Origin: Procambarus clarkii
Lineage: Eukaryota > Arthropoda > Malacostraca > Decapoda > Cambaridae
DNA: 64,000 bases
Direction: 5' to 3'
Assembly: GCF_040958095.1 (NCBI RefSeq)
Contig: NC_091228.1
Coordinates: 9,746,340-9,810,339, forward strand
The position numbers and the translations under genes are program-made. Below, piece after piece: positions 33,801 to 36,800 of the stretch. The stretch's first letter is position 1. Every line of letters begins with the position of its first letter. A model generated the notes under the pieces. It did not search any database and was not told the origin of the DNA. It saw only the letters and a program-made list of their open reading frames with translations.

Positions 33801-36800
33801 CAGTATTGCGTCAGATTTTATTACAATAAACACATTATATCCAATGTATCTGAGAATTAAATTCGATTCTCTATAACCAAGGCATTCTGTATGATAATTA
33901 ATTACAGATAAATTGACTTCCAACTAAGAGCCGAATAGAGCGTTAGAGTCATAGCGATTATCGAGTAATAAAAGTTAACGTCACGAGTGAATGCCATGGG
34001 GAGACATTAATTCCTCTCCCTTATACGTTTACTATCACTAAACTGGCAAATAATAATATTTCCCTCTTCTAAATAATAAACCCGTCCAGTCTCCAACATT
34101 TCAAGCATAAATGCGAGAAATATTAATGTTCGTGACAATAACTTGTTTAATGAACGTGGGACGCGGCGTGGGTGAGGAGGACCAAGCCAGTACACGTGGA
34201 GGGAAGCTCTGAGGCAGACCTACCCGTATTGTGCTCACGAGGAGACGCCATTGCCCAGCCATCAGGGTAGACGTTATCCATCCTCAGATGAAAGTCGCCA
34301 CTGTGAGGCGTGAACAACCTCGCAGATAATATCTTCAACTGGTGCTGGTGTAACATAAGGAACCTTTTTAATCTGGTTCCTGACTACACGTGACTGGCCA
34401 GGGAAGCGCGCCATTATCCAGGATAGGCTGAAGCCAGAGCCTGGGGACGCGAATTTCGGCAATCTTAAAACTTATACAGTGCCCATATTAGCTAAGTATC
34501 TTATCTTTATTCGATGCATCTGGTAAAGTGTAGTGTAGTAGCTGGGTGATTGACCGTGACGACGCATGATAACACCAAACCACAGGTGATTACTTATTAT
34601 CACCTGTAACTCTTAAATTCTTGAATATAGAGATTCAGTAGTTTAATTAGTTGCTACTGTAAATATTTGTCTTGCAGCACGTGAGAAGAATTCTCCCTGC
34701 CGCCTTCTCCCATGTTAATCCATCCCATTCGTCAGCCAGCCGAGCCCAGGGAATTAGAGGAAGCGTCGTGGCTTACATAAAGGAATCGTCTTTAAGCTAA
34801 GATTCTTTGTATTCATTCATGAACTTTCTGAATTACTTACATGCAGAATTCCTCAGGATTAACATGTGTTTATTGTGACTATCATTATTATACTTATAAT
34901 CTATGTTCCCATTTATGGTAATGACATTAGTTTCACTATAATTCATAGGATTAGCTTATTATAATTTGTATTAGTGAACGAACCACACTAGTTCCTGGAT
35001 GTACTGACTTCCAGTAATAACCCCCCAATGTAGGTGTTTGAGGGTTTGATTCATTTAATTATACAGCCCATTAATTATTTCTATGATCATATTCTCTAGT
35101 ATTTTATCCATAGTTACTGGTTCATCTAGGAATTATCTAATGATCAGAAATTCTTTGTTTTCCTCTTTACTATAAAAGTGGGTGGTCCTTCGTAATTTAA
35201 TTTACTACATTAATATTTAAATAATCAGATTCAAGCCCCAAATGTCCCACATTATGGTCCTTCGAACCGGATAGGCATTAAATTTATAATTAAAATATTA
35301 ATCATTAATAACTAATCCTTGTGTGATAGAAGCTAGACTAACTATTTAATTAATTGAGTCAACTAACAGTGTAACACATCAGTTAGCCTAGATCACACTA
35401 ACATATTGCTACTTTCACCTCATGTATAAGGTAGCTTTAGTGGGTCATAGCCAATTACCCACAATACTTAGACCTATACCTCACACAGAGGTGAGAATCT
35501 TTAGGTCACCAGGAGCAACAGCTCATAACTTTTATAATAACCCCCACCCTAACACCTGCATTAGAGTGGCCTCACCATCTAACCATTATATACTTAGGTG
35601 GTAATGACATCCACGCCACTTGTCATCCAGCCGAGGTGATCAAACACCTCAAAGCCATAATTTCTTCTTTCAAGCTTATCAGTGAATCGGTAGTATTCAC
35701 ATTAGTGGAACCTCGCCAACCAAGTCAAGATAATCGTTGGGGAGTAAACCCAGAATACTACCTGAGAGCAACTAAGTACATAAATTTCAGGCTGAAAAAA
35801 CGAGTGAGATTGGATGCCACATATATCCAATTTACAGCCAGACCTTACAGACAGAACCTGACCAGAGATGGTGTACACTTGTCAGGAGAATCTAGGTTGC
35901 ATGTGGTTGACAAGTTAATTAACACCATCAACCATCACAAACGGCTGTGGCTAGCAAGCCAAACTTAACTGTACATAATTGTTTCACCTGTGTGTGCAAG
36001 AGCACTCTTATAAAACAAAAAACCCAAAAATACAGCACAACTATACTCACCTTACTGCACCACAATAATCTTTACCCATGTTAGTAGGTAGAATTTAGGC
36101 TGAGATTGTGCTGAATTTGGTACAAGCCCAGATTAAATAATTTTATAGTTCTTAGTTAGGAATTATTACGACTAGATCTAAACTAGTCAGTGTTGTATGT
36201 ATTATATTATTTGTGCTGACCCTATACAGGGTGGGATTAAATTTTGAGATAACTCTGATTAGAGTGTCTCCATAATATTTCTCTTGTATGCATTATTTTT
36301 GTGTATCTATTTTGTGTATTGCTGGATAATCTCCATTAACTCTGATGGTGATATAGATGAGCTAACCGGACGAGAACTAATGGTGAAGTTCAGACAGTGC
36401 ACAAAATATCTAGCTATTTGTTGTTAGGTAGGTAGGTACATTCAACCTCAAGTGAGGAAAAACATAAAGTAGTCACCTTAAATTAGGCTACATTTAATGT
36501 TACTTGTCCACTAATGAACAAGTACCCAAGCTTCATTAGTAATACATATATTGACACTGTGAAGTTTGAACCTAAGCCCAACATGGCTACTCCTGAGCAA
36601 TTGAGGAGAACCTACATTAGCCTTAAAGGTCATTTGACCAGATTAATTAATAAGGCTGAGGGCTTAACTAAAGATACTCCCATTGACTCTTATCACTTAG
36701 AGACATCAGTTAGAGTAGCTGAACTGAAATTTGATCAAGTCAGATCTGCAGGTAAATCTTACCTTGATCTACTAAATACTGTAGAAACTGATCCTGATGA

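What the first reader, a model, noticed from the sequence alone, without database searches (positions are those of the whole stretch)
35422..35968. SGNH/GDSL hydrolase-like frame between LTR and gag of a BEL/Pao retrotransposon
Seen: in order, GHS in a VALVGHSQLP context, RSPGAT, LGGND in an IIYLGGNDI context, and DGVHLS. These correspond to blocks I, II, III and V of the SGNH fold, spaced over about 160 codons, with one frame change near 35555-35595. Known: SGNH hydrolases use these Ser, Gly, Asn and His residues, and esterase domains occur in CR1-group LINE ORF1. Inference: this LTR element carries, or recently carried, an accessory esterase-like gene upstream of gag, an arrangement I do not know from BEL/Pao elements.
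Basis: partly seen in the sequence, partly recalled or inferred. Interest (0 to 1): 0.82.

Follow-up and report, generated by a model that had tools for sequence, protein, structure and literature searches.

The report
Esterase-like gene in crayfish BEL/Pao retrotransposon
A jumping gene of the BEL/Pao family in a crayfish genome seems to carry, ahead of its usual genes, the broken remains of a small esterase-like gene, a passenger known from other retroelements but in a place and an element family where my searches found no earlier report.

Summary
A BEL/Pao element (LTRs 33640-35251 and 42272-43882, TSD TAGGT) has, 170 bases after its 5' LTR and 545 bases before gag, an SGNH/GDSL-hydrolase-like unit at 35422-35968. 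It lies in two overlapping frames: GHS and RSPGAT in the first, LGGNDI and DGVHLS in the second. The second piece matches Lipase_GDSL_2 (E 0.0006 and 0.001, below Pfam's cut-off); the first matches nothing. The second frame's openness is beyond chance (0 of 2000 shuffles open), the motif order too (0 of 100 shuffled windows); codon usage adds little. This copy is broken: one frame change here, one in gag, one in pol. The host is Procambarus clarkii or very near (gag 97% identical to a P. clarkii protein). The decisive test, sibling copies, could not be run (genome search not answered in 12 tries), and no relative of the second piece was found. SGNH genes are known in rotifer LTR elements, CR1/L2/RTEX LINEs, Penelope-like elements and Ngaro; for BEL/Pao, ahead of gag, I found none in the papers searched. 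Best reading: a captured SGNH esterase leader gene, decayed in this copy. New variant of a known kind, resting on one copy.

The parts
33635..33639 (.). target-site duplication TAGGT, left
   Evidence: TAGGT left of the 5' LTR; same word right of the 3' LTR
33640..35251 (+). 5' LTR (TG...CA)
   Evidence: pairs with 42272-43882; 16 substitutions and 1 gap in 1612 aligned columns
35255..35272 (+). primer-binding site, TGGTCCTTCGAACCGGAT
   Evidence: reverse complement reads like a tRNA 3' end with CCA; which tRNA was not tested
35422..35604 (+). SGNH-like unit, first piece: ATG, block I (GHS), block II (RSPGAT); frame open to 35604
   Evidence: no profile hit; codon usage not informative
35495..35968 (+). 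SGNH-like unit, second piece: block III (LGGNDI), block V (DGVHLS), stop
   Evidence: PF13472 E 5.8e-4; 0 of 2000 shuffles open over 35558-35965
35969..36513 (+). leader between the SGNH-like unit and gag; stops in all three frames, seven ATGs
36514..36897 (+). gag, first piece (starts MNKYPSF like P. clarkii P0121); frame breaks near 36857-36897
   Evidence: 87.5% identical to P0121 over 120 aa
36857..38509 (+). gag (DUF1759) and aspartic protease; ends at TGA 38507-38509 followed by CTAG
   Evidence: 97% identical to P0121, which ends at the same place
38510..39112 (+). pol, first piece, same frame as gag-protease
39037..41916 (+). pol: Pao peptidase A17, integrase zinc domain and DUF5641 above cut-off; RT, RNase H and integrase core below it; frame differs from the first pol piece
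42272..43882 (+). 3' LTR
43883..43887 (.). target-site duplication TAGGT, right

Best explanation
A BEL/Pao element lineage of crayfish captured a compact, stand-alone SGNH hydrolase gene (about 180 codons) and carries it as its first gene, before gag. Shown: position, motifs, an open second frame beyond chance, clean element boundaries, and a frame change in this copy. Inferred: in working copies the protein is made from the genomic RNA as the first long frame after the LTR (one 6-codon frame precedes it in the internal region), stays in the cytosol (the chain seems to begin directly with the first core strand, leaving no room for a signal peptide) and cleaves acyl or acetyl esters, helping Gag particles or RNPs assemble at, move along or cross membranes, as proposed for the CR1-type esterase. 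Gag would then need splicing, re-initiation or internal entry, since seven ATGs lie between the two genes, and Pol would come from leaky termination at the UGA-CUAG junction. This copy's SGNH, gag and pol frames decayed after insertion (or carry assembly indels).
For: PF13472 match of the second piece, with weaker SGNH/lipase-named matches in PF00657, NCBIfam and PHROGs; the Ser, Gly, Asn and Asp/His positions present in order across the two pieces; 0 of 2000 shuffles open over the second piece; ATG at the start and a stop at the end of a domain-sized unit; both motif patterns once in the window, side by side, and 0 of 100 shuffles; element complete in outline, LTRs 99% alike, TSD, flanks that rejoin a LINE frame; one gap event between two LTRs of 1.6 kb predicts about two indels in about 6 kb of coding DNA, three frame changes seen; P. 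clarkii relatives read on through the gag and pol breaks.
Against: No sibling seen, so presence in the family and selection are untested. No relative of the second piece in 5.8 billion proteins (6 candidates, none E <= 0.01), although 612 relatives of pol (of 7992 scored, 120 listed) and 22 of gag (of 7991 scored) were found. Codon usage with stops left out is not above chance for the first piece (551 of 2000) and only slightly for the second (55 of 2000); 13 of 80 stretches elsewhere in the window score as high in their best frame, and both pieces (0.064, 0.089) lie below gag/pol (0.139-0.173, the training set itself). The sliding profile, which penalises stops, is therefore mostly openness, and leader windows without a gene reach 2.8 against 1.2-5.7 in the second piece. 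Pfam bits below cut-off, first piece unmatched. No SGNH entry by sequence among solved structures; none of the 38 fold matches is named an SGNH/GDSL hydrolase and the model is poor. 0 of 141 gag/pol relatives bear the SGNH words.
Confidence: 0.65

Rival explanations
1. A private capture: the SGNH-like piece came from another retroelement or a host gene into this one copy or a small subfamily, for example by template switching, and never served the BEL/Pao element.
For: No siblings seen; no relative in the protein database beside many P. clarkii gag/pol relatives; its codon usage lies below that of gag and pol.
Against: A whole domain with its own ATG and stop just after the primer-binding site; no second element's frame of 60 aa or more beside it. 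A 5'-truncated LINE insertion would leave ORF2, not ORF1 (general knowledge).
Confidence: 0.2
2. The gene is not broken: the frame change is passed by programmed frameshifting, or is an assembly error, and this copy makes the enzyme.
For: Both frames overlap openly for 110 bases (35495-35604); the catalytic positions are kept.
Against: gag and pol of the same copy also change frame where P. clarkii relatives read on, which suits decay or assembly error; no test of a slippery site was made.
Confidence: 0.08
3. Chance resemblance in leader DNA; no SGNH gene.
For: Sub-threshold profile score; no hit for the first piece; codon usage near chance; no relative.
Against: 0 of 100 shuffled windows give either pattern; 0 of 2000 shuffles are open over the second piece; PF13472 E near 0.001 over most of the piece, in register with the motifs.
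Confidence: 0.07

Closest known systems
GDSL esterase/lipase ORF3 of bdelloid rotifer Vesta LTR retrotransposons (PMC5408684, abstract and passages seen)
   Same: SGNH hydrolase gene carried by an LTR retrotransposon, invariant residues kept, activity unproven, thought auxiliary
   Different: There an ORF3, in elements the paper calls retrovirus-like (Gypsy-like is my recall) with dUTPase; here before gag, in BEL/Pao
Esterase domain in ORF1p of CR1/RTEX (and L2) LINEs and some Penelope-like elements (PMC3905857, passages seen; L2 from PMC5408684)
   Same: SGNH esterase toward the 5' end of a retroelement; ZfL2-1 domain crystallised and active on esters
   Different: There a domain of a multidomain RNP protein of elements without LTRs; here a stand-alone unit in an LTR element
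SGNH hydrolase ORF of Ngaro-type YR retrotransposons (PMC9210276, passages seen)
   Same: Separate SGNH ORF in a retroelement, no proven function
   Different: There after the tyrosine recombinase gene, in elements with split direct repeats; here LTRs and a DDE-type integrase
Canonical BEL/Pao elements (PMC3118150, passages seen; domain list recalled)
   Same: gag, protease, RT, RNase H, integrase, LTRs, short TSD; one or two ORFs
   Different: Extra SGNH-like unit ahead of gag; 'esterase' occurs 0 times in that survey's text

Membership tests
SGNH/GDSL hydrolase superfamily | Blocks I, II, III and V in order with Ser, Gly, Asn and Asp-x-x-His | tested here: met
   but spread over two frames
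SGNH/GDSL hydrolase superfamily | Match to a curated SGNH profile above its cut-off | tested here: not met
   PF13472 20.8 and 19.9 bits against 32.9 for the second piece alone; first piece no match
SGNH/GDSL hydrolase superfamily | Flavodoxin-like alpha/beta/alpha fold | tested here: inconclusive
   single-sequence model of the second piece, mean pLDDT 46.6; 0 of 38 structure matches with E <= 0.001
SGNH/GDSL hydrolase superfamily | Uninterrupted reading frame | tested here: not met
   frame change within the overlap 35495-35604 in this copy, after RSPGAT and before LGGND
SGNH/GDSL hydrolase superfamily | Esterase activity | not testable with these tools
   needs protein
BEL/Pao LTR retrotransposon | LTRs, TSD, DUF1759 gag, protease-RT-RNase H-integrase order, Pao peptidase A17 | tested here: met
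   DUF1758, RT, RNase H and integrase core matched below cut-off, but 612 relatives
GDSL ORF3 of Vesta-type LTR elements | Gene lies after pol | tested here: not met
   unit lies before gag in a BEL/Pao element
CR1-type ORF1 esterase | Esterase in ORF1 of a LINE, upstream of an endonuclease-RT ORF2 | tested here: not met
   followed by BEL/Pao gag
SGNH gene as a fixed part of this BEL/Pao family | Present, open and under purifying selection in sibling copies | not tested
   The genome search not answered in 12 tries; protein search of the second piece found none

The most novel reading that the evidence does not exclude
A crayfish BEL/Pao lineage stably carries a catalytically competent SGNH esterase as its first gene and expresses Pol by leaky termination, i.e. 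a retroelement that brings its own cytosolic lipid-acting enzyme ahead of Gag, made before particle assembly; an arrangement I know from no BEL/Pao or other LTR element.
Probability: 0.37. Interest if true: 0.72.

Novelty: new variant of a known kind. Interest (0 to 1): 0.48.

Why it matters
SGNH esterases turn up in several unrelated retroelement classes, and what they do there is unproven; in bdelloids the authors saw no clear link to copy number and no significant departure from neutrality (PMC5408684, passage). If BEL/Pao elements also took one up, in another gene position, that would be a further recruitment, and it offers a comparison (leader gene, probably cytosolic, beside a true Gag) that could separate a role in particle assembly or trafficking from an envelope-like role.

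Tried and rejected
Relatives of the second piece: none in the protein database, IMG/VR, phages; solved structures 0 at E <= 1 and two unrelated weak ones at E <= 10. Relatives of pol: IMG/VR none; genome contigs 4 loci, of which I listed frames of 2 (L001, positions 1-3700, and L004) and read them by eye without a profile scan. L001 has only about 370 bases between an integrase piece and the gag frame, with no SGNH frame, and its odd order makes it a poor witness; L004 holds an integrase fragment; L002 and L003 begin inside pol. SGNH words in the fetched gag/pol relatives: 0 of 141. Fold of the second piece: too poor to use. GTRAGT splice donors in 35253-36600: none. Promoter/terminator scan: bacterial consensus, not used.

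Codon usage as proof of coding: first taken as strong, then rejected as such, because those scores punish stop codons; without stops it is near chance for the first piece and weak for the second. My confidence was lowered from 0.70 to 0.65 for that, the novel reading from 0.40 to 0.37 and interest from 0.50 to 0.48.

Idea that the UGA between gag-protease and pol is a lesion: disfavoured, because P. clarkii relatives P0121, P0124 and P0126 end at the same place; but P0130-P0132 end a few residues away, and more distant relatives (P0007, P0018, P0019) run on into pol without a stop there. LINE-fragment origin: considered, disfavoured (no LINE frame beside it).

Full report
What is there. The window holds one BEL/Pao element, complete in outline, on the + strand. 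Its LTRs are 33640-35251 and 42272-43882, begin TG and end CA, differ by 16 substitutions (12 transitions, 4 transversions) and 1 gap in 1612 aligned columns, and are flanked by TAGGT on both sides. It sits inside a minus-strand LINE: with the flanks joined, the LINE's endonuclease-like frame runs on without a break. An 18-base primer-binding site follows the 5' LTR (its tRNA was not tested). DUF1759 gag, Pao peptidase A17, the integrase zinc domain and DUF5641 match above Pfam's cut-off; DUF1758, RT, RNase H and integrase core match below it.

The host. Pol is 59-78% identical to five Procambarus clarkii proteins that cover at least 60% of it (P0001, P0002, P0003, P0005, P0006), and gag is 97% identical over its 550-residue open stretch to another, P0121. 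The window is therefore P. clarkii or something very near.

The SGNH-like unit. An ATG at 35422 and a stop at 35966-35968 bound a unit of about 180 codons. It begins MYKVALVGHSQLP, has RSPGAT, then LGGNDI, then RDGVHLS. The first two lie in one frame, open 35392-35604; the last two in another, open 35495-35968. The second piece matches PF13472 at E 0.0006-0.001, below the curated cut-off. Its other SGNH or lipase matches (PF00657, AxeA1, a PHROG; E 0.008-0.077) are at about the level of an unrelated family, Cas10 palm, at E 0.011-0.015. The first piece, 60 residues, matches nothing.

Is it more than chance. Over 35558-35965 none of 2000 dinucleotide-preserving shuffles is open; over 35422-35547, 111 of 2000 are. 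Motif patterns of blocks I-II and III-V each occur once in six frames of the window, side by side, and in none of 100 shuffled windows; they were chosen after the fact. A sliding codon profile trained on the element's own gag and pol is positive in the first frame for window starts 35403-35493 and in the second for starts 35493-35853. That profile punishes stops. When stops are left out, the first piece is at chance (551 of 2000 shuffles reach it) and the second slightly above (55 of 2000), 13 of 80 stretches elsewhere in the window do as well as the second, and both pieces lie below gag and pol, which were the training set. So the case rests on openness, motif order and one profile, not on codon usage.

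Is it broken, and since when. Gag changes frame near 36857-36897 and pol near 39037-39112, where P. clarkii relatives read on. With the SGNH unit that makes three frame changes in about 6 kb of coding DNA. The LTR pair shows one gap event in two times 1.6 kb, which predicts about two per copy in that length. So the SGNH frame is not clearly more decayed than the essential genes, as expected if it was intact at insertion. The numbers are tiny.

What could not be done. The genome search did not complete in 12 tries (listed in Tried and rejected). The protein database returned no relative of the second piece, while it returned 612 for pol (of 7992 scored; 120 listed) and 22 for gag (of 7991 scored; 19 of the 22 bear the name P. 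clarkii). Short frames in transposons are seldom annotated as genes (general knowledge), so this is weak evidence of absence, but it speaks against a well-conserved gene among annotated proteins of 86-275 residues. Of four BEL-like contigs in bacterial bins none is a good witness: one (L001) shows the stretch before gag, without such a unit, but in an odd order and with only about 370 bases there; one (L004) is an integrase fragment; two begin inside pol. None of 141 fetched gag/pol relatives bears the SGNH words; they would show it only if fused.

How it most likely works. The protein would be the first long product of the genomic RNA: the internal region has one earlier ATG (35254, 6 codons) before 35422 (the transcription start in the LTR is unknown). 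It seems to start at the first core strand, so I infer a cytosolic protein. By analogy with the ZfL2-1 esterase, whose domain was crystallised and hydrolyses esters (PMC3905857, passages), it may act on lipids or acylated molecules in particle assembly or transport. Gag is then not the first frame: seven ATGs lie between the two, so splicing, re-initiation or internal entry is needed; no GTRAGT donor was found in 35253-36600. Pol follows gag-protease in the same frame behind UGA-CUAG, a context I recall as favouring readthrough. Three P. clarkii relatives end at the same place (P0121, P0124, P0126); three others end a few residues away (P0130-P0132), and more distant relatives have no stop there.

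What is known. GDSL genes occur as ORF3 in Vesta LTR elements of bdelloid rotifers and in Terminons (PMC5408684 abstract and passages; PMC6431247 passages; PMC5718144 passage), in ORF1p of CR1, L2 and RTEX LINEs and in Penelope-like elements (PMC3905857), and as an extra ORF in Ngaro elements (PMC9210276 passages). A platyfish SGNH gene was mobilised by a Helitron (PMC4021074, listing only). For BEL/Pao I found no report in eight searches of the open-access library that bore on it (two more, asked about P. clarkii elements and stop readthrough). Some lists were cut (15 of 16, 12 of 211), I looked into ten papers by passages only, and subscription papers and Repbase notes are not held. The 2011 BEL/Pao survey's main text holds the word esterase 0 times (PMC3118150, passages).

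Verdict. An SGNH-like, probably formerly coding unit in an unusual position of a BEL/Pao element, seen in a single broken copy. New variant of a known kind if siblings bear it out; a good lead that one genome search would decide.

Noticed in passing
38507-38513: gag-protease ends in TGA followed by CTAG and pol continues in the same frame; P. clarkii relatives P0121 (97% identical), P0124 (71%) and P0126 (45%, 15 member sequences) end at the same place, P0130-P0132 a few residues away. Looks like leaky-stop expression of Pol in a BEL/Pao lineage.
   Followed up: partly
33300-33639 and 43888-44500: The BEL/Pao element splits the endonuclease-like frame of a minus-strand LINE; joined flanks read through. 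A related stretch at 15527-16817 is 74% identical to 33500-32193.
   Followed up: partly
28068-30939: Tandem array of 70 copies of a 41-bp unit, 95% matches.
   Followed up: no
8001-12747: Several neighbouring tandem arrays with units of 18, 20, 40 and 80 bp among others.
   Followed up: no
43862-45409, minus strand: LINE open frame with a long proline-serine-rich stretch ahead of the endonuclease-like part (by eye; endonuclease match below cut-off).
   Followed up: no
55861-55931, minus strand: Predicted tRNA-Thr (anticodon cgt), the only tRNA call in the window (bacterial settings).
   Followed up: no
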